NCBI RefSeq assembly: GCF_003010935.1
Contig: NZ_PGGN01000004.1
Span: forward strand, 620,001-684,000
Length of the DNA stretch: 64,000 bases
Direction: 5' to 3'
Source of the DNA: Phyllobacterium endophyticum
Lineage (GTDB): Bacteria; Pseudomonadota; Alphaproteobacteria; Rhizobiales; Rhizobiaceae
Shown here: positions 12,233-53,498 of the stretch, piece after piece
Numbering within the stretch: position 1 is the stretch's first letter
Layout: each line of letters opens with the position of its first letter
Program-made: the position numbers and the translations under genes
The notes under the pieces: generated by a model
The model's database searches: none
Seen by the model: the letters and a program-made list of their open reading frames with translations, nothing else
Told to the model about the DNA's origin: nothing

Positions 12233-12252
12233 GTTTGAGCCCTTCACGATTC

Positions 12253-13551
12253 TCAAGCCCTGGTTTCCGGAGCGGCCGCAACACCGGCCGGTTGGCCGCC
12301 ACTCCTGGTTTTCGCAAGCACCGCTTCGGTGATCGAGTTGGGCAAGCGCCGCGGTGTTTCGATCAGACCAAGGAGCGGCATCAGGACAATGAAGAAGCCA
12401 AAGTAGTAGGCAGTGCCAAGCTGGGAGAACAATGTGTACAAGCCCTCGGCAGGACGCGATCCCAGCCAGCCAAGCATGATGGCATTGGCGACGAAGAGCC
12501 AGAAGAACAGCTTATACCAAGGGCGGTAGACAGCAGAACGTATCTTCGATGTGTCTAACCACGGCACAATGAACAGGATTGCGATCGAACCGAACATCGT
12601 CAGGACGCCGCCGAGCTTGGAGTTGATCGGCCCGATGTTGAAGGTGATCGCGCGCAGCATCGCGTAAAACGGCAGGAAGTACCATTCAGGGACGATGTGA
12701 GCAGGCGTTTTTAGAGAGTCAGCCTGGATGTAATTGTCCGGGTGGCCCATGTAATTCGGTAGATAGAAGACAAAGTAGGCGAAGAGGATGAAGAAAATCA
12801 CCATCCCAAATGCATCCTTGACGGTCGCATAGGGCGTGAAGGCAACAGTGTCGGTCTTGGATTTGACCTCGATGCCAGTAGGATTTGTCTGACCAGTGAC
12901 GTGCAAGGCCCATACGTGCAGGACAACAACACCTGCAATCATGAACGGCAGCAGATAGTGCAGCGAGAAAAACCGGTTGAGCGTGGGATTGTCCACGGCA
13001 AAGCCACCAAGGAGCAACTGCTGGATCGGGTCGCCTATAACGGGGAATGCCGTGAAAAATCCAGTGATGACTGTTGCACCCCAGAAGGACATCTGTCCCC
13101 ATGGCAAGACATAACCCATGAAGGCGGTCGCCATCATCAGGAGGAGTATGATCACTCCAAGAATCCACAACAGTTCGCGTGGCGCTTTGTAGGAGCCATA
13201 ATAAAGCCCGCGGAAGATATGTACGTACACCGCCAGGAAGAACATGGATGCGCCGTTCGAGTGTAGATACCGCAGGAGCCAGCCCGAATTGACATCGCGC
13301 ATGATCTTTTCCACGGAGTTGAATGCCAGCCCGACGTCCGCAGCGTAATGCATCGCCAAAACCACGCCGGTCAGTATCTGTGAAACCAGCATGATCGCCA
13401 GAATGCCACCAAATGCATAGGCATAGTTCAGATTGCGCGGAACTGGATAGGCGACAAAAGAATCATAGACCAGGCGCGGCAATGGCAGTCGCGCGTCGAT
13501 CCACTTCTCGATGCCGGTGCCCGGCGTATAGGATGAATGTCCACCGCTCAT
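12253..13551 (-). CDS. petB: Cytochrome b of the bc1 complex
   Basis: A 432-residue membrane protein carrying haems bL and bH and the Qo and Qi sites. Recognisable segments are [48 protein letters not shown] (Qo region), [15 protein letters not shown] (PEWY motif) and a C-terminal extension. About eight membrane helices are expected. It is the middle gene of petA-petB-petC, 21 bases after petA and 20 before petC. Confidence 0.97.
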
Positions 13552-45497: not shown

Positions 45498-45959
45498 ATG
45501 AAGAATTTGGACAGCCTCGACCGCAGAATATTGCGCGAGCTGCAGAAGGATGGACGCCTTACAAACACTGAGTTGTCCGAGCGTATCAGCCTGTCACAAA
45601 CCGCTACCACGGAACGCGTCAAGCGACTGACCCGCGATGGTTATATCCTCGGATACACCGCAAAATTGTCGCCTAAAAAGCTTGATCGCGCAATGCTTGT
45701 GTTCGTAGAGATCAAGCTTGACCGCACAACCCCGGACGTCTTCGCAACCTTTGCCGCCGCCACGCGCCGCAACCCGGACGTCATGGAGTGCCATATGGTC
45801 GCTGGCGGCTTCGATTATCTGATAAAGGCACGCGTTGCCGACATGGAACATTACCGGCGCTTTCTCTCCGACATGTTGCTTTCCCTACCGGGTGTAAGGG
45901 AAAGTCACACATATGCGGTGATGGAAGAGGTCAAGGAAACGTCGAGCCTGCCGGTTTAG
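45498..45959 (+). CDS. putR: Lrp/AsnC-family regulator PutR
   Basis: A 153-residue Lrp/AsnC protein. An N-terminal helix-turn-helix (about 5-50, LDRRILRELQKDGRLTNTEL) precedes a RAM ligand-binding domain (about 65-145, with VMECHMVAGGFDYLIKARVA). It is divergent from putA, the arrangement known in Agrobacterium and Rhodobacter, where PutR activates putA in the presence of proline. The 109-base spacer contains an AT-rich palindrome next to the putR start, suiting autoregulation. Confidence 0.93.
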   Translation: MKNLDSLDRRILRELQKDGRLTNTELSERISLSQTATTERVKRLTRDGYILGYTAKLSPKKLDRAMLVFVEIKLDRTTPDVFATFAAATRRNPDVMECHMVAGGFDYLIKARVADMEHYRRFLSDMLLSLPGVRESHTYAVMEEVKETSSLPV

Positions 45960-45978: not shown

Positions 45979-47112
45979 CTACTGCTGCAGCACCTGCTTG
46001 ATATCGATGAGGTTTGAACGAACGCGCAGAATATAAAACCCCATTGTCGTCAAGTGGTTCGGCAAGAGCCAACCGCCCTCGCTACCATTGGCGATGATCC
46101 ACGGCTTGATGTTCAGCGCCGAGCGAAGCTGGCCGTCCATGGCATCCCACAGCGGGATCAAGTGCTTTTCATCCAATACCTGCTTGAAATCCACCTGTGC
46201 CGCGTTCATCAATCCGTAGTACGCGTATAGCTGCCCATAGGCGAACCAGAAACGATCGTCGGCGCGCGTATCGAACCAGCCATAATTGTTGTTCTCCGAG
46301 CGGTCCTTCAATATGGCAGATGTTGCGCCGATATCGTTGGCGATTCGGTCGATGAACTGAATGAGATTGTCTGCTCGTGCGTCGAAAATGGCGTTGCAAG
46401 ACTCAAGTTTCGTGTTGAATGTCCGCAAATCCCTCACCGCCGAACGGTAGTAACTCGGCGTAGGAGTCTTGGGCCCAAAGGGGTTTACCCCGAAATACCA
46501 CGCGTCTTCGGTAAACTGGAGATTTCCGCGCGCTTTCTGCAGGTCGGCATCGATCTGCGACGTACCGCGGACGCGTCCAAGCGTATCGACCAGTTCGACA
46601 GCTGTGCGGCGCACTGCGGAGTTGATGCCGCGCTGGAAGGATGCCTTGTTGTCAAGGAAAGGCGTATTATCCCAATCGACACCGAAGAACCCAAGTTTGT
46701 ACAGAAGCATGGAGGAAATCCAGGCATTCTGGTTGACGTTGAAATCTGTCAGGTCGGCCGTAACCTGCACGATAGCTGAGCGTGCACAAGTCTTTGCTCC
46801 ACCTGTATCGACCGCTTGTGTTGGCGATGGAACCGGCTCACCCACCGGAACAGTCAGGTTCTTGAAATTGTACGACGTGATGTAATCGGGGTTGAAGTTC
46901 TTCCAGACCTGCGTCGTGTAAAAGAAGTAGCCGTACAGACCGAGCCACACGAGCAATGCGAGGCCGAGAACTGCCTTCAGAATAAGGCTGCGTTGGACAT
47001 ACCAGCTTCCCGCCCACATGAAGGGCCACAGAATAATACCGATAACAAAGCCGATACCGCGCCCGACATAGTAGAAAATCCTGCTGAAAAAATTGATCAC
47101 GGGCTCGAGCAT
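45979..47112 (-). CDS. DUF2333 membrane-anchored protein
   Basis: A 377-residue protein with two N-terminal hydrophobic segments (about 14-36 and 43-66) and a large, probably periplasmic, domain beyond residue 70. Conserved-looking blocks are NAWISSMLLYKLGFFGVDWD, DAWYFGVNPFGP and NNYGWFDTRADDRFWFAYGQ. These fit DUF2333, a family without assigned function. It is the last gene of a five-gene minus-strand cluster, 180 bases downstream of the DUF6638-like gene, so it may have its own promoter in addition. Confidence 0.82.
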   Translation of the reverse strand: MLEPVINFFSRIFYYVGRGIGFVIGIILWPFMWAGSWYVQRSLILKAVLGLALLVWLGLYGYFFYTTQVWKNFNPDYITSYNFKNLTVPVGEPVPSPTQAVDTGGAKTCARSAIVQVTADLTDFNVNQNAWISSMLLYKLGFFGVDWDNTPFLDNKASFQRGINSAVRRTAVELVDTLGRVRGTSQIDADLQKARGNLQFTEDAWYFGVNPFGPKTPTPSYYRSAVRDLRTFNTKLESCNAIFDARADNLIQFIDRIANDIGATSAILKDRSENNNYGWFDTRADDRFWFAYGQLYAYYGLMNAAQVDFKQVLDEKHLIPLWDAMDGQLRSALNIKPWIIANGSEGGWLLPNHLTTMGFYILRVRSNLIDIKQVLQQ

Positions 47113-47292
47113 CCTGTTCCTCGTTACTGTTCAAGTCCTTGGGCAGGCTTCTCAGCCTCTCCTCGTCAAATAGGTTGTTTTTGGGAAATCGACAACGTGT
47201 TCCTGCGATATAGAGATTTGGTCGTTCCATAGACCCCCGATTAATGCACCACAACGGACGTATCAACGGTACGAGCCTTAACGCCGTTACAT

Positions 47293-48576
47293 TCAAGCCA
47301 GCCCATATAACCGCTTCCGCAGCCCTTCTTTGTCCTTCAAATAAACCGTCTTCAGAGTATCGACGACGTGGGCCTGATAGGGAGGGCTCCAGCCCTGATA
47401 ATCCGCGTAGAATCCCGGCTTGTTGAAGACATAGCGTGAGAGGAAATCCCATGGCACGAAGTCGCTGATCAAATGATTGACGAGCCAGGCGTCCGGGTGG
47501 CGTGGCAAGGCGCGTATCACAAGAAACCGGCGTTTCGGATCGATCTCCGCCATGTTGAGCTGCCCGGTCTGGCCAATCTCGCGTTTTACCGCATTGAGAA
47601 ACGGCCATGTGCCGTCATGATTGATGAGGCTGGCATTGGCGTGAATCCATGTTTGCAGCCAGATGCGATCGATGTTGGTCAGATCGCGATTGGGCTCCAG
47701 CGACTGGATCAGATGGCGAATGATCATCTCGCCGCGGTTTTCCAGATAGCCGGATTGCTCGATCCAGGAGGCGCGCGGCAGTTCGATGCGCCCTGTTGTG
47801 CTCAGAAACTGAAAAACCTGGTCGGCATCCTTGATGGAGATATAGTTCACCTGCCACGGGCGCGACCGACGGAAGCCCGGCGCAGCGGGATCACCTATAA
47901 CTGTCGTCGTGTTATCATCGACGAAGACGAAGAGGCCGCCGAAATGGCTTGTCCAAAATGCGTTGTGCCGGAATATGACCTTATCCGGCACTAGAGAATT
48001 CGCCCGGATATCCCCCGTCACCTTGGCGAGTTCCACCATGCGGTTGATGAGTTCGTCGTTGCGCCAGGCGTCAGGCTCGTCCTGAAGTCGATCGACCAGC
48101 AACCGCAATTCCGCCGCCTGCCCCATGACGTTCTGCGCGGAAAGCACCCGGAACTCAACCTGATTGATCGATAGCAGGTCCTCGATGTCGTTGACGACCG
48201 AGACGGAGTCTTCAATCTCGCCGTAAATCACGTCCTTGATCGTCAGCGCATTTATGGCACGGGAATTGCTGGCAAAAAACTCGTACATCAGCTGCGAAGT
48301 ATTGGAAAATTGCGTGTGCACGACCGGCAAATCCGCCTGCGCGGGCGTCAGAATGATAAACCTGCGGTTGACCCCGTTCGGGTCGAGATAGGATGGGTCT
48401 TTCAGTTCCCTAGCGATTTCCGGCGAGAACCCTGTCCTGTCGATGTTGAACTTCTGCAGTTCGGTCGCGGGAAAGCCAAAGGACTTCAGCGCGCGGTTAT
48501 AGCGCTCGATCAGATGCGGCTGGTCGATCGCCAGCAAGCGCCCATAGATCAGCTCGCTTTCGTAAAGAAGCTCCAT
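47293..48576 (-). CDS. Conserved protein, probably DUF6638, of the AAA/coiled-coil cluster
   Basis: A 427-residue soluble protein. It has MELLYESELIYGRLLAIDQP at the N-terminus and a patterned C-terminal region (IWLQTWIHANASLINHDGTW, then DFVPWDFLSRYVFNKPGFYA). I believe NCBI places such proteins in DUF6638, but I could not check this. No catalytic motif is evident. The ATG overlaps the AAA ATPase stop by one base (TGATG), so the two are coupled. The frame extends four codons upstream, inside the ATPase gene. Confidence 0.75.
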   Translation of the reverse strand: MELLYESELIYGRLLAIDQPHLIERYNRALKSFGFPATELQKFNIDRTGFSPEIARELKDPSYLDPNGVNRRFIILTPAQADLPVVHTQFSNTSQLMYEFFASNSRAINALTIKDVIYGEIEDSVSVVNDIEDLLSINQVEFRVLSAQNVMGQAAELRLLVDRLQDEPDAWRNDELINRMVELAKVTGDIRANSLVPDKVIFRHNAFWTSHFGGLFVFVDDNTTTVIGDPAAPGFRRSRPWQVNYISIKDADQVFQFLSTTGRIELPRASWIEQSGYLENRGEMIIRHLIQSLEPNRDLTNIDRIWLQTWIHANASLINHDGTWPFLNAVKREIGQTGQLNMAEIDPKRRFLVIRALPRHPDAWLVNHLISDFVPWDFLSRYVFNKPGFYADYQGWSPPYQAHVVDTLKTVYLKDKEGLRKRLYGLA

Positions 48577-50486
48577 CAGACGTCCCACTGACCCTTGGCT
48601 TTGAGCATTTCGACCTCCCGCACCGCCCGTTCGCGCAATCTGGCGTCCCGCACCATCTTATCCACGGCCGCATCGTCGGACTTGTCAGCGTAGCGGAATT
48701 CCGAATCTGCATACCTGTTCGTCTCCTGCAGCACCATCTCCATCGTAAAGGGCTTTCGAAGTTGCTCGATCATCGCTTTCTTGTCATCGTAGCTCTTGTG
48801 CATGAAGGTTTCCGGCTTTTCGAACCATTCATCCGGCAGTTCTACATCCATTGCTCGCATCTTGATGGCGTCGGTGACGTTCTTGATGGCGCGGCCGGTG
48901 AAGCGCGGCTCACGCTCCTTGATCATATGCAGGTAAGTACCAATATCGGACAGCGTCTTCGGCTCCCCGTTTTCGGCAATGAAGCGGTCGTAGACAGCCC
49001 TGAGTCCATCTTCCTGCGGCTTCGACAATTCGCCATACGCCGTCTCCACCGCTCTTTCGATCTGCTGCGCTTCGAAAAGCTTGTGGTCCCCGAGCGGTAT
49101 CTTGTGGTTCTTGCCGGCAAGCAGCGCGAAAATATCAATGTAATCATCGCGAGTTTGCGGACCATCGACCAGCCAGCGCGCACCGGCGCGTTGCCTCAAG
49201 GCATCGTCGACATTCTCGGGGTAGTTGGAAAACATCCCGAACGAGCAATTGCCTCGCACGACTGTCGATGCGCCGGAAAAGGCTTCCATCAGCACACCCG
49301 TAATCTCGTGCTGGCCCGAGGAGGCGCGGTCGTCCGAGCGCTTTGCCGCCACCTGATCGATGTCGTCGATCGTGCCAAACCCGATCACGCGCGGATTGAG
49401 CACATTGGTTACGAACTGCTTGCAGTTCTGTCCGGATTTGCCCTGATAGGATGATATCTGGTCCACCCCGAAATTCTCGTAATGGAAGGCGTAGCCGGCA
49501 ATTTGACAATAGTCGTTGACCAGGCCTGCAATCATCTGGATCAGTGTCGTTTTGCCAGTACCGGGGGCGCCATCGCCGATAAACGTGAACAGGAAACCAC
49601 CTAATTCGACGAATGGATTGAGCTGCCGGTCGAAATCGTAGGCCATCAGCATTTTCGAGAGCTTGAGCGCCTGATATTTGGCAATATGGTTGCCAACGAC
49701 CTCATTCGGCTTCTTGAAGGTCATCACCAGCGGTGTGCGCTTCTTGGAGGGCGCCACATCGAACCCATCCAGCGTAAAGTCGTCACTGTCGAGCCGCAGA
49801 TGGGTGTCTTCGAAACTTCCGAGCCCGTCGAACCGCCCCTTGCGCTGCAAAAGCCCTTCGATTGCAAGTGCGGAAAATGCTTTGGCACGCGACAGCATCA
49901 CTTGTTCATCGGCTGCGCCCGAAATTGCGCGATCAAGACCTGCAATCACCGACTTCAAGGCGTCCTGCGCAGTATCGAATACATAATCCGGCTCTCTGAC
50001 ATCATTGGCAGGCTCAGAATCTGCCTCGATCATCTGGGCAAGGTAAGCGGCGAGGGAAAAAGCGGCTATGTATGACGCGGCAGAAAGAAGCCGTTTGAAA
50101 TGACTTGCCTCCTCGCCCTGCAACGGCGCCGAGGCATTGCGGCGCATCAGAGCTTCAAGATCGCTCTGGCGGCCGAAGAGATCGGCGACTGCCAGCGCAA
50201 CTGCCGCGCCACGACGCGCCCGGTAAAGCAATGTGTGTTGGGCAATGGACATCATCTGGTCGTCGGGACGCACCGCGCCGATGGTCTTGGCAAGCTCTAC
50301 CTCGCGCGTCTTTCGCAGCCCCCCCGTTGAGACAGTTGAGACAAAACGCCTGCCTGTTCCTGCGATCTCCGCCCCCGGCTTGGCATCGCCACTATCCAGC
50401 GAGACGAATCTCGTCACCATTGCCTGTGCGACGGCTAGATGCTTGGCAATGTCCTTTTCATCGAGCGTGGTCAGACCGACATCCAT
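48576..50486 (-). CDS. AAA-family ATPase of the uncharacterised five-gene cluster
   Basis: A 636-residue protein with a novel-looking N-terminal region (about 1-260) and one AAA module. Walker A is GDGAPGTGKTTL (about 303-314). Walker B is GFGTIDDIDQVAAKR (about 368-382), the classic AAA IDEID block but with Asp in place of the catalytic Glu. Sensor-like GMFSNYPENVDDALRQRAGA follows with a candidate Arg finger (about 425-440). The C-terminal third is helical and charged. No protease, helicase or nuclease domain is seen, so it is probably a remodelling ATPase for its neighbours. A small CGGCCG hairpin lies just upstream. Confidence 0.85.
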   Translation of the reverse strand: MDVGLTTLDEKDIAKHLAVAQAMVTRFVSLDSGDAKPGAEIAGTGRRFVSTVSTGGLRKTREVELAKTIGAVRPDDQMMSIAQHTLLYRARRGAAVALAVADLFGRQSDLEALMRRNASAPLQGEEASHFKRLLSAASYIAAFSLAAYLAQMIEADSEPANDVREPDYVFDTAQDALKSVIAGLDRAISGAADEQVMLSRAKAFSALAIEGLLQRKGRFDGLGSFEDTHLRLDSDDFTLDGFDVAPSKKRTPLVMTFKKPNEVVGNHIAKYQALKLSKMLMAYDFDRQLNPFVELGGFLFTFIGDGAPGTGKTTLIQMIAGLVNDYCQIAGYAFHYENFGVDQISSYQGKSGQNCKQFVTNVLNPRVIGFGTIDDIDQVAAKRSDDRASSGQHEITGVLMEAFSGASTVVRGNCSFGMFSNYPENVDDALRQRAGARWLVDGPQTRDDYIDIFALLAGKNHKIPLGDHKLFEAQQIERAVETAYGELSKPQEDGLRAVYDRFIAENGEPKTLSDIGTYLHMIKEREPRFTGRAIKNVTDAIKMRAMDVELPDEWFEKPETFMHKSYDDKKAMIEQLRKPFTMEMVLQETNRYADSEFRYADKSDDAAVDKMVRDARLRERAVREVEMLKAKGQWDV

Positions 50487-50525
50487 ACTAGAGCCCTTTC
50501 CGGCCGTTTCGGCCGTATCTGTTTC

Positions 50526-51677
50526 TCAAATGCCGCTGATGACCTGTCCATTGGACAGGATATGGGTGTTAAATCCCGTGAAAATCTTTGCGGCATCACC
50601 CGAGGCGTAAAGAGCCTGATAGGCCTCATGCGGTACGAGGGCATGCTGCTCATAGTGACTGACGCCCTGTCTTGCGGCTTCGAGGTCATCGGTGTTGATG
50701 TGAAACTCCTCGCGCGCCGGCTCCGACGACCATAACCCCCGCTTGCCGGGCCGTTCGGCCGTTGAGAAAACCTCCTGCAACGTCCAGGTCAGAAGCCAAG
50801 CATCCTCGGGCTTGCGTACCCTCTCCAGGACATCCGCAACTTTCTGATTATGCTCCGTAATACCAGCCGTATAGAATGGTCCGAGAACGATCCGGCGTAG
50901 CTGTTTGGGATGCAGCTCCGGAAAATCCTGGTCGAGTGCAGTGGCGATAGTGACGGGAGACAGTGAGTACGCAGAATTTTTCGCGGCGAAGTCGTCGAAC
51001 CTGCGTGCGAGGTCCGGGTTCAGAAGACCGCCAACTGGCAATGGGATTTTGACCTTGTTGTTAAGCTTGGCGCCTTCGACCACCAGCGCCTCAACCATGG
51101 ATTCCGATGAATCCTCGATGACGGCCATATAGATCAATGGCAGGTTGGAAGCTCCATCGAATGCGCCCCAGTGCACCACGTAGAAGGGTCGCCCCGTCTT
51201 GGGATTAACCGAAACGCGAATAGTCGTCGGCAGCAGGAAAGGCGAGAAGACCTCGCCCTTGTCGACAGTTTCCAGATAGATCCGTTCCGCCATCGATTTC
51301 TGCAAAGCGCGGGGGAACTCGCGATTGCGTAGAATAAAATCTGCCATTTCGCCGCGAAGTGCGTTTGCTGGCGGAATGGCCGCAAGCCGGGTGGACGCAT
51401 CCTTCTTGTCGTTCTCCAGTTCCAGAACATTCTGGAAGATGGGAAAACCGCTTTCTGCCTTCGATATGCGAAAGCGCTCGGCAAAACCAAGCCTGTTACG
51501 CCAGCATTCGAACGACGCATTCAGGCGCTGCAAATATTCGGAAACGGTCTGCGCGACCAGATCATGCTTGTAGAGCGGCGAGTCCTGGTTGGCCAAAAAG
51601 TCGCCGAGACCGTCCAATGCAGCACTTATGGAGCTGAAATAACGCTCCGCCGCCGTCTGATCTGCATTGCCTGGCAT
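50526..51677 (-). CDS. Conserved soluble protein of the AAA/coiled-coil cluster
   Basis: A 383-residue protein without membrane segments or recognisable catalytic motifs. The N-terminal part is helical (ADQTAAERYFSSISAALDGL), the middle is beta-rich (SVNPKTGRPFYVVHWGAFDG), and the C-terminal part includes DAWLLTWTLQEVFSTAERPG. I do not recognise the family. It lies 3 bases after the coiled-coil gene and 39 before the AAA gene, so it is translated with them and is presumably a partner. Confidence 0.75.
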   Translation of the reverse strand: MPGNADQTAAERYFSSISAALDGLGDFLANQDSPLYKHDLVAQTVSEYLQRLNASFECWRNRLGFAERFRISKAESGFPIFQNVLELENDKKDASTRLAAIPPANALRGEMADFILRNREFPRALQKSMAERIYLETVDKGEVFSPFLLPTTIRVSVNPKTGRPFYVVHWGAFDGASNLPLIYMAVIEDSSESMVEALVVEGAKLNNKVKIPLPVGGLLNPDLARRFDDFAAKNSAYSLSPVTIATALDQDFPELHPKQLRRIVLGPFYTAGITEHNQKVADVLERVRKPEDAWLLTWTLQEVFSTAERPGKRGLWSSEPAREEFHINTDDLEAARQGVSHYEQHALVPHEAYQALYASGDAAKIFTGFNTHILSNGQVISGI

Positions 51678-51680
51678 GGA

Positions 51681-52769
51681 TTAGCTCTTCACGTAGTCGG
51701 CCGAGTTATGCTTTTTCAGTACTTCCGAGAACCTGCGCGAGAAAGCATCATCTGCCAGCTTCTTGCGGCGCTGGATGTCCTGTGAACTGACCATGTTTCT
51801 CTCGTGCATCTCGAGCAGATCGCCAATGTGTTTCTGAGCAGCTGCTCCAACACCTGCCATTGTTTCTTCGGCCGCAGTATCGACCTTGCTTCCAAGCGTG
51901 TTGATCTTGTGCGCCACATCCTGTTGTGCTGCCGTTTTCAACGAATCTTCCAGCGCCTTGTAAAGAACAATGCGTTGCTCAGTGTCGATCGACAATTTGT
52001 TTATCAGCGTGCTCTGCGCCGCGATCTGGTTGTTAAGTGAATCGACGAAGGTCTGGAACATGGATGTGTAGCGTTCCAGCGTCTGGCTCTCCGCAAGAAG
52101 CTCCTGTTCCTTGGCTTGCCGCTCGTTATATTCTGTTGCGAGCTTTGACCGTTGCCCTTCAAGCTCCGTGCGCGTGCTCTGATCTGTCGACGCCGCGATC
52201 CTGTTCTCGATATCCAGCAACAGGGGGTTAAGTTCCTCGATGCGTTTTTGCGTGGCTTCCAGGTTTGCTATCGTGGACTTGCGGCGTTCGATAACGGTGG
52301 CAAGGCTCGCCTCGGATGTCTTGTAGCGCTCATCCAGTACGGCCTTTTGCTCTTTCAAAATTCCGACGATACGATCCGACTTCGAGAGAAGCTCCTGGAG
52401 GTTGCCCGCAAGCGACATATTGCGGACGCGGTCCGAACGCAGGCGTTGCATTCTTTGCTTAGAGAAAACCCCGATAAACTTTTCCCAACCCGAATAACCC
52501 TTCATGCTTTCGAATTCGGAACCGAACACGTTGGTCGCGTCCTCAAGCCCGATTATCAGTTCTGCAATATTGCCCTCCATTACTTTCTGCTGGCGCAAAA
52601 CATCCTCAATGCGGGCATTCTCTATATCGAAATCCGACGCGCCGATCTTCTCGTCGGCCTTGGCGAATTTGTCGAGAACAACCGTCGACTGATCGATTTT
52701 CGTCCGCATATCGTCGACCATCGTCCTGGTCTTCTCGATCTCGGAATCGAAGTTCTGCAAACTCGCCAT
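51681..52769 (-). CDS. Long coiled-coil protein, first gene of the AAA cluster
   Basis: A 362-residue, almost entirely alpha-helical protein with heptad patterns from about residue 1 to 90 and 150 to 300, rich in Glu, Lys, Gln and Leu. It has no signal peptide and no membrane segment. A less helical patch around 85-105 reads GWEKFIGVFSKQRMQRLR. The overall layout recalls TelA-type and other membrane-associated helical proteins, but I cannot show homology. I start at ATG 52769 (MASLQNFDSE), preceded by AAGGGAACCCAC; the 35 codons upstream look non-coding. Confidence 0.8.
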   Translation of the reverse strand: MASLQNFDSEIEKTRTMVDDMRTKIDQSTVVLDKFAKADEKIGASDFDIENARIEDVLRQQKVMEGNIAELIIGLEDATNVFGSEFESMKGYSGWEKFIGVFSKQRMQRLRSDRVRNMSLAGNLQELLSKSDRIVGILKEQKAVLDERYKTSEASLATVIERRKSTIANLEATQKRIEELNPLLLDIENRIAASTDQSTRTELEGQRSKLATEYNERQAKEQELLAESQTLERYTSMFQTFVDSLNNQIAAQSTLINKLSIDTEQRIVLYKALEDSLKTAAQQDVAHKINTLGSKVDTAAEETMAGVGAAAQKHIGDLLEMHERNMVSSQDIQRRKKLADDAFSRRFSEVLKKHNSADYVKS

Positions 52770-52889
52770 GTGGGTTCCCTTGATTGTAAAAATGATCTGC
52801 CGCGCCGGTCGAATATAGACACGTACCATTGCGAAAAAAAGCCTCCGAAAAGGTGACAGGTTCAATGTCGCCAACGCAGGTAGAGATTT

Positions 52890-53498
52890 CTATGTTTGAG
52901 GTTCGCCGGGCTGACGCGGATCAATGCGCCCGGTCTCTTCTTCCCAGTGCTTGCGGCAGAGCGAGACGTAGACAGATTTTTCGATCGCAACCTGATCGCC
53001 CTCGAGCAAGGCCTCCCCTTTCGAACCGTGACGCACCACCATTGTCGCCTTCGCGCCGCAATGACAAATCGTCCTGATTTCACGCAGCGTGTCGGCGATC
53101 GCCAGAAGTTCAGCGGAACCAGGAAACAGCTTCCCCTGAAAATCCGTACGCAGGCCAAAACACATCACCGGCACGTCGAGCCGGTCGACAACACGCGCTA
53201 GTTGCCAGACCTGATCCCTTGTCAGAAACTGTGCCTCGTCGATGAAGACACAACTCAGGCGATTCTTGTGCTGCGCTTCGGTGATCAGCGCGAGCAAATC
53301 GTCGTTTTCGCGGTAAAGCTGCGCCTCCGCACTGACGCCGAGCCGCGAGGTGATTCGTCCGACGCCGTTTTCGGCATAATGCGCGGCTGTAAACAACATC
53401 GTGCGCATGCCACGCTCCTGATAGTTGTGAGAAGCCTGCAGCAGCAGAGTGGACTTTCCGGCATTCATCGCCGAATAACTGAAATAAAGTTTTGCCAT
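52890..53498 (-). CDS. tdk: Thymidine kinase
   Basis: Phosphorylates thymidine with ATP (type II, TK1-like). The 202-residue protein has a P-loop SAMNAGKSTLLLQA (about 9-22), the Walker B-like CVFIDEAQFL, a lasso-domain zinc site (CHCGAKA and a later Cys in SLCRKHW) and CFGLRTDFQGKLFPGS. Length and order of motifs are normal. It starts 186 bases before the divergent choX gene. Confidence 0.95.
   Translation of the reverse strand: MAKLYFSYSAMNAGKSTLLLQASHNYQERGMRTMLFTAAHYAENGVGRITSRLGVSAEAQLYRENDDLLALITEAQHKNRLSCVFIDEAQFLTRDQVWQLARVVDRLDVPVMCFGLRTDFQGKLFPGSAELLAIADTLREIRTICHCGAKATMVVRHGSKGEALLEGDQVAIEKSVYVSLCRKHWEEETGRIDPRQPGEPQT

What the first reader, a model, noticed from the sequence alone, without database searches (positions are those of the whole stretch)
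45979..52769. Five-gene AAA ATPase / coiled-coil / DUF2333 cluster with no assigned function
Five consecutive minus-strand genes encode a 362-residue coiled-coil protein, a 383-residue unknown, a 636-residue AAA ATPase, a 427-residue unknown and a two-helix membrane protein with a large outer domain. The first four are packed with gaps of 3, 39 and -1 bases, so they are coupled. None carries a known nuclease, protease or metabolic domain. The set looks like an ATP-driven remodelling machine with a membrane anchor and a long helical scaffold. Envelope organisation or stress protection are reasonable guesses, but nothing in the sequence proves either.
Basis: partly seen in the sequence, partly recalled or inferred. 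Interest (0 to 1): 0.75.

Follow-up and report, generated by a model that had tools for sequence, protein, structure and literature searches.

The report
Four-gene AAA motor and coiled-coil module
Four neighbouring genes of a Phyllobacterium-like bacterium, found together and in the same order in every intact copy examined from soil rhizobia to Vibrio megaplasmids, likely encode an ATP-driven machine that remodels a coiled-coil protein, while the fifth, membrane-protein gene is a separable neighbour.

Summary
The five genes are as described: A coiled coil, B unknown, C AAA ATPase, D DUF6638, E DUF2333. A-B-C-D is a real unit. In 200 genomes of the phylum, B, C and D occur in the same 15, and A in those 15 plus two. 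Order is conserved in 75 of 75 untruncated named loci, in ten loci of three unnamed families and in two Vibrio megaplasmids. E is not core: 40 of 199 family genomes have it without C, 7 of the 15 genomes have DUF1523 instead, and the Vibrio and Rhizobium leguminosarum plasmid copies lack both nearby.

Seven loci keep A beside E with B, C and D gone. In the five measured, A falls from at least 79% to 26-29% identity while E stays near 60%: A is held constant by B-C-D. C keeps Walker A, an aromatic pore loop, sensor 1 and arginines, with aspartate for the usual Walker B glutamate in 91 of 91. Nuclease or toxin genes often sit between C and D, so a defence reading stays open.

The parts
51681..52769 (-). 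Gene A: 362-aa coiled-coil-type protein, single proline at residue 182, no cysteine; core member
50526..51677 (-). Gene B: 383-aa protein of no known family; core member
48576..50486 (-). Gene C: 636-aa AAA ATPase (Pfam AAA at residues 306-436, own N- and C-terminal regions); core member
49548..49577 (-). Walker A of C (residues 304-313)
   Evidence: GDG-PGTGKT: all positions but 307 invariant in 91 of 91 sequences
49431..49451 (-). Predicted pore loop 1 of C (residues 346-352, SYQGKSG)
   Evidence: invariant in 91 of 91; the name pore loop 1 rests on its position relative to other AAA proteins (recalled)
49356..49367 (-). Walker B of C (residues 374-377, DDID or DDVD): aspartate where AAA proteins usually have the catalytic glutamate (recalled)
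   Evidence: D374, D375 and D377 in 91 of 91
47293..48576 (-). Gene D: 427-aa DUF6638 protein; core member
45979..47112 (-). Gene E: 377-aa DUF2333 membrane protein, two cysteines (109, 239) invariant in 81 of 81; accessory neighbour, not core
52813..52841 (-). Promoter-like element (CTTTCAATCS-N12-CATATAT type) ahead of A
   Evidence: 58 of 73 upstream regions, 58-83 nt before A, no further match in 2.6 Mb of both-strand sequence of the same loci

Best explanation
Genes A-B-C-D are a conserved four-gene unit whose products are predicted to form an ATP-driven protein-remodelling machine in which the AAA motor C would pull on the coiled-coil protein A with B and D as its likely partners, and the DUF2333 membrane protein E is a separable neighbour. 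Shown: co-occurrence and order of A-D, loci that have lost B, C and D together, loss of conservation of A in them, conservation of the motor motifs of C, independence of E. Inferred: that C is a hexamer that threads or disassembles A, that A forms long helical assemblies, that B and D are adaptors, and that residues 61-90 and 271-330 of A contact the motor module. In the window's family the module is probably transcribed together with E from a promoter just ahead of A; in the other family with several copies (f14, unnamed) a small hydrophobic protein and DUF1523 lie in the place of E. The cellular purpose is open; an accessory stress or quality-control function would fit repeated loss better than an essential one.
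For: Phylum sample of 200 genomes: D in 15, C in the same 15, B in the same 15, A in those 15 plus G043 and G107. Family sample of 199: C in 116, A in 122, and no genome with C lacks A; B and D were not searched in that sample. A-B-C-D in V. parahaemolyticus (36, 32, 41, 28% identity), V. vulnificus and R. leguminosarum pRlX5, and A-E in S. meliloti. Motor motifs of C invariant in 91 of 91. Constraint test: A 79-97% identical to the window's A in 75 full loci although E falls to 45%; in 5 loci without B-C-D A is 26-29% while E is 59-62%. All 7 such loci known lie beside the choline transporter, as 77 of 80 named loci lie beside it or the thymidine kinase. Promoter-like element.
Against: No structure, interface or phenotype was available. 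A has no detectable relation to ESCRT-III, PspA or TelA, so its being a filament or substrate is inference. Walker B aspartate could mean a slow or assembly-type ATPase rather than a threading motor. A continues beside E without B-C-D in 7 genomes, so A may have another partner, possibly E. The low identity of A there could reflect a new function rather than lost contacts.
Confidence: 0.5

Rival explanations
1. A five-gene envelope machine: E is the obligate inner-membrane anchor and the complex organises or repairs the envelope.
For: In the family sample 115 of 116 C-positive genomes also have E; the one without it has 930 contigs. E follows D in all 75 untruncated named loci, with a median gap of 16 bases over 77 loci. 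DUF1523, whose members have hydrophobic segments near both ends in three of four checked, is present in the 7 core genomes without DUF2333 and lies behind D in their loci. E remains beside A after loss of B-C-D.
Against: E occurs in 40 of 199 family genomes without C and in 39 of 47 DUF2333-positive genomes of the phylum sample without the core. The V. parahaemolyticus, V. vulnificus and R. leguminosarum plasmid stretches read have no DUF2333 or DUF1523 match. Identity of E does not drop when B-C-D are lost.
Confidence: 0.2
2. A chassis for toxin or nuclease effectors, for example a defence or conflict system, with the C-D junction as a swappable effector slot.
For: The C-D gap exceeds 250 bases in 42 of 78 loci, against 3 of 77 (A-B, one of them the split B of L102), 6 of 78 (B-C) and 1 of 77 (D-E). 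Of 62 insert ORFs listed for all junctions 57 were scanned: 24 match DUF559, 5 PIN, 5 Fic, 3 ParE, 3 Phd/YefM, 2 PLD, 1 HicB; PADLOC gives SoFic for 4 and DrmC for 2. Two f14 loci hold AbiJ_NTD4 and DUF3825 at C-D. DUF559 was hit 25 times in 31 kb of C-D gaps; the two other hits overlap gaps inside the operon, and none lies in 780 kb of outer flank. Its distances follow those of C only weakly (Mantel r 0.18, 67 of 999 permutations as high). Plasmid-borne copies and loss in many lineages.
Against: 27 of 78 loci, the window's genus included, have no insert. The locus keeps one chromosomal neighbourhood in 77 of 80 named loci, unlike a shifting defence island. A is at least 79% identical in the 75 full loci. 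No core protein passes as a known defence protein (best TRIP13, 19.3 bits, on the AAA core). Toxin-antitoxin and DUF559 genes may simply be hitchhikers. C not found in phage records or, with one query sequence, in viral contigs.
Confidence: 0.12
3. A bacterial counterpart of ESCRT-III/Vps4: A polymerises on membranes and C disassembles the polymer.
For: C carries an aromatic pore-loop motif, and some public names place it with SpoVK/Ycf46/Vps4. A has a single proline, at 182, and proline/glycine-free runs of 42, 45, 87 and 46 residues, and its conservation depends on B-C-D. Pairings of PspA or Snf7 with AAA ATPases in bacteria are described in PMC11237479 (passages read).
Against: No MIT or Vps4 C-terminal domain in C at E<1. 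The PspA/IM30 profile has no match in the window's genome, and profile comparison gives probability 28 over 59 columns (E 0.0006 for the single comparison). B and D have no ESCRT counterpart that I know of. Membrane binding by A untested.
Confidence: 0.15

Closest known systems
Vps4 / classical-clade AAA ATPases (COG0464-type)
   Same: AAA core with Walker A, aromatic pore-loop motif, sensor-1 Asn and arginines at the finger positions; best PDB relatives by sequence are Rpt subunits, AFG2 and the i-AAA ATPase domain
   Different: Own N- and C-terminal regions without a Pfam match, no MIT or Vps4_C, aspartate for the Walker B glutamate in 91 of 91, three conserved partner genes
Bacterial PspA/Snf7 loci with AAA ATPases (PMC11237479, passages read)
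   Same: Helical protein encoded with an AAA ATPase
   Different: A is not detectably PspA, C has a single AAA domain, no counterpart of B or D is named in the passages that I saw, and the paper's main text does not mention DUF2333 (0 occurrences)
TelA toxic-anion resistance proteins (PF05816)
   Same: Helical protein of similar length (recalled; the model has 332 positions)
   Different: TelA profile above cut-off in 0 of 61 family genomes, the window's own included; two weak matches lie in G239 and G256 at other places than A
DUF2333 and DUF1523 membrane proteins
   Same: E is a DUF2333 member; DUF1523 takes its place behind D in 7 core genomes
   Different: Both families also occur without A-D; I know of no function for either. 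One paper in the library names DUF2333, near hcp3 of P. fluorescens (passages)

Membership tests
AAA ATPase (PF00004) | Profile match over the curated cut-off with Walker A and B, sensor 1 and arginine finger | tested here: met
   43.5 bits against 21.2; motifs invariant in 91 of 91, with D for E in Walker B
[quoted passage not shown]
   Neither domain among the five families listed for C at E<1
FtsH / proteasomal ATPases | Fused M41 protease domain, or proteasome-activator equivalog match | tested here: not met
   No protease domain; proteasome-activating models 14-16 bits against cut-offs of 500-750
ESCRT-III / PspA (PF04012) | PspA_IM30 profile match by gene A | tested here: not met
   0 matches in the window's genome; not among the 25 of 40 families shown for ten A proteins; profile comparison probability 28
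ESCRT-III / PspA (PF04012) | Membrane-bound helical polymer of an ESCRT-III fold | not testable with these tools
   Structure prediction switched off
TelA (PF05816) | Profile match by gene A | tested here: not met
   0 of 61 genomes over the cut-off
DUF6638 (PF20343) | Profile match by gene D | tested here: met
   246 bits, cut-off 27
DUF2333 (PF10095) | Profile match by gene E | tested here: met
   83.9 bits, cut-off 22
Known anti-phage defence systems (PADLOC) | Core proteins match a catalogued defence family | tested here: not met
   Only C, weakly, to AAA proteins TRIP13 (19.3 bits) and IetA (14 bits)
Known anti-phage defence systems (PADLOC) | Protects against phage | not testable with these tools
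   Needs a phage plating assay

The most novel reading that the evidence does not exclude
A-B-C-D is an undescribed, self-contained and horizontally mobile machine: a AAA motor that cycles a dedicated coiled-coil scaffold, plugged into different membrane proteins by lineage (DUF2333, DUF1523 or none) and loaded with interchangeable nuclease or toxin genes at a preferred slot between C and D, in effect a modular effector platform of bacteria.
Probability: 0.2. Interest if true: 0.88.

Novelty: new variant of a known kind. Interest (0 to 1): 0.62.

Why it matters
Of the four core proteins, A and B match no family and D only a family of unknown function, yet they are kept with a single AAA ATPase in alpha- and gammaproteobacteria, with A at least 79% identical in 75 full loci. 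Natural deletions of B-C-D that leave A behind offer a ready-made genetic test of which parts of A the motor module needs. If C disassembles A, bacteria have a further motor-filament pair unrelated by sequence to ESCRT-III/Vps4; if the C-D slot carries effectors, it is a new kind of effector platform. Sinorhizobium meliloti, a laboratory organism, has the whole set, annotated there as three hypothetical proteins, an ATP-binding protein and a DUF2333 protein.

Tried and rejected
B and D as homologues: a weak phmmer hit (E 0.00064) was not borne out by profile comparison (probability 0.2). A as TelA or PspA: no profile support. General stress (EcfG) promoter ahead of A: 0 of 73 upstream regions, shuffles 1.15. 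A heat-shock-like regex gave 31 of 73 against 12.4 in shuffles, and a sigma-70-like one 5 against 2.5; the regexes were loose and I make no claim from them. A, B and D against solved structures: nothing informative. PHROGs: only C, weakly (best a clamp loader family, 27 bits). C in phage records and viral contigs: no match; the viral scan used one sequence, so it finds close relatives only. Co-inheritance of DUF559 with C: weak. Literature: DUF6638 in 0 papers, DUF2333 in 1, DUF1523 in 4, seen as a search listing only; combined searches gave no paper that by its listing describes this set.

Full report
What is there. Pfam assigns C to AAA, D to DUF6638, E to DUF2333, B to nothing, and A only to families below cut-off. 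The closest named proteins to C are from Phyllobacterium at 84-89% identity, the closest named loci are Phyllobacterium at 88-93%, and the E tree places the window among Phyllobacterium. Searches of solved structures by sequence gave nothing informative outside the AAA core.

Is it one system? In one sample of 200 genomes of the phylum, D occurs in 15, C in the same 15 and B in the same 15. A occurs in those 15 and, much diverged, in two more. In a family sample of 199 genomes C occurs in 116 and A in 122, and no genome has C without A; the six with A alone are five with a diverged A and one assembly that is 68% complete. B and D were not searched in that sample. A-B-C-D stands in that order in 10 of 10, and A-B-C-D-E in all 75 named loci not cut by a contig end. 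The 80 are the best of 460 confirmed matches and, by their titles, rhizobial or unplaced proteobacterial records, so they are not an even sample. Outside these, V. parahaemolyticus carries A-B-C-D in order on a record of 0.94 Mb, at 28-41% identity to the window; V. vulnificus and R. leguminosarum pRlX5 carry A-B-C-D, and S. meliloti the whole A-E set.

E is separable. DUF2333 is in 47 of 200 genomes of the phylum, 8 of them core-positive. In the family it is in 155 of 199: 115 of 116 with C, and 40 without. The 7 core genomes without DUF2333 all carry DUF1523, behind D, in several loci after an 88-aa protein with two hydrophobic segments. DUF1523 too occurs without the core, in 6 of its 13 genomes. 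The Vibrio and R. leguminosarum stretches have no match to either. E has two cysteines invariant in 81 of 81 sequences, which would fit a periplasmic disulfide; this is inference.

Natural deletions. In seven family genomes a diverged A sits directly ahead of E and none of B, C and D is in the locus; C is absent from those genomes, while B and D were searched genome-wide only for two of them. The last two of the seven were found with a profile that already held diverged A sequences. Fifteen further loci, chosen by me among the 40 genomes with E and without C, have E and no recognisable A to D. The locus is the same chromosomal place: at least one of thymidine kinase and the three choline transporter genes is near in 77 of 80 named loci, 7 of 7 reduced loci and 13 of 15 E-only loci, but in none of the 7 loci of f14 and f34 nor in the Vibrio and R. 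leguminosarum stretches. On the tree of E (76 full rows thinned to 44 by similarity before the count, one more full row added, 7 reduced, 15 E-only, 4 outgroup; 44 full in all) the full state needs 11 changes, at least 8 forced by well-supported branches; one reduced locus (L169) is sister to a full one (L203) at 100/99. This is a protein tree of a selected set with some long branches, so the number is a guide only. The pattern fits B-C-D being lost together several times, then A decaying, with E staying.

Constraint on A. In the 75 full loci A is 79-97% identical to the window's A, although E falls to 45% in the same set. In five reduced loci A is 26-29% and E 59-62% (the two reduced loci found later, L206 and L207, were not in that comparison). 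The largest drops are at residues 61-90 (0.93 to 0.18) and 271-330 (0.92 and 0.82 to 0.14). A's conservation therefore goes with the presence of B-C-D, which is the best evidence here that A works with that module. A change of function in reduced genomes is an alternative reading.

The motor. In 91 of 91 C sequences (window, 80 named loci, 10 unnamed) Walker A except position 307, the SYQGKSG loop, D374, D375 and D377 of Walker B, S420, N421, R431, R433 and R437 are invariant. The Vibrio protein has GDGKPGTGKT, EYQGKSAQN, GFGTIDDID and GMFTN. Reading these as pore loop 1, sensor 1 and arginine fingers uses general knowledge of AAA proteins. The aspartate in place of the catalytic glutamate may slow hydrolysis; this is inference. 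MIT, Vps4_C and protease domains were not found.

Expression. A promoter-like element with near-fixed spacing lies 58-83 nt ahead of A in 58 of 73 upstream regions (the window and 72 loci in which a start could be set), and the pattern has no other match in 2.6 Mb of both-strand sequence of the same loci. The pattern was tuned on these sequences and many are closely related, so the count overstates independence. In the window it is at 52813-52841, between thymidine kinase and A.

The slot between C and D. In 42 of 78 loci there are more than 250 bases between C and D, far more often than at the other junctions; in 27 there are 60 or fewer. Matches among the 57 insert ORFs scanned are mostly DUF559, with PIN, ParE/Phd-YefM, HicB and PLD proteins; the Fic genes appear in B-C gaps. 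DUF559 matches fall 25 times in C-D gaps; the two other hits overlap gaps inside the operon, leaving none in the outer flanks. DUF559 distances follow those of C only weakly. Either the junction tolerates hitchhikers, or it is an effector slot; I think the first more likely. The window has no insert.

Mechanism. I commit to an ATP-driven remodelling machine of A-D with A as the substrate or scaffold of the motor. Confidence is high that A-D are one genetic unit, moderate that C acts on A, low on what the cell uses it for. No paper that I found in the held library describes the set.

Noticed in passing
C-D junction, window 48576; L050, L055, L112, L221 and others: The junction between C and D is an insertion slot (gap over 250 bases in 42 of 78 loci) filled mostly by DUF559 and toxin-antitoxin-type genes; the window's copy is empty.
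   Followed up: partly
L021:10458-11480 and L022:8304-9128: In two genomes of family f14 the same junction holds an AbiJ_NTD4 protein and a DUF3825 protein.
   Followed up: partly
L222 (CP099927.1) and L224 (NZ_CP015514.1): Vibrio records of about 0.9 Mb carry A-B-C-D next to an mfd copy and LysM proteins; the V. vulnificus record also shows a secA copy and an RNase H family protein: a possible third replicon with its own housekeeping paralogues.
   Followed up: no
L166 (G135): A genome of family f14 has DUF1523 without A-D, which mirrors the DUF2333-only loci.
   Followed up: partly
L152:10473-11495 and 12233-12904 (G015); G007 contig 22 at 441-445 kb: In two genomes of family f23 DUF2333 lies within about 1.6 kb of a PspA gene; a possible link of DUF2333 to envelope stress.
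   Followed up: no
window 45498-45959 and 52890-53498: Lrp/AsnC-type regulator converging on E, and thymidine kinase ahead of A; the thymidine kinase and choline transporter genes recur beside the locus in relatives.
   Followed up: partly
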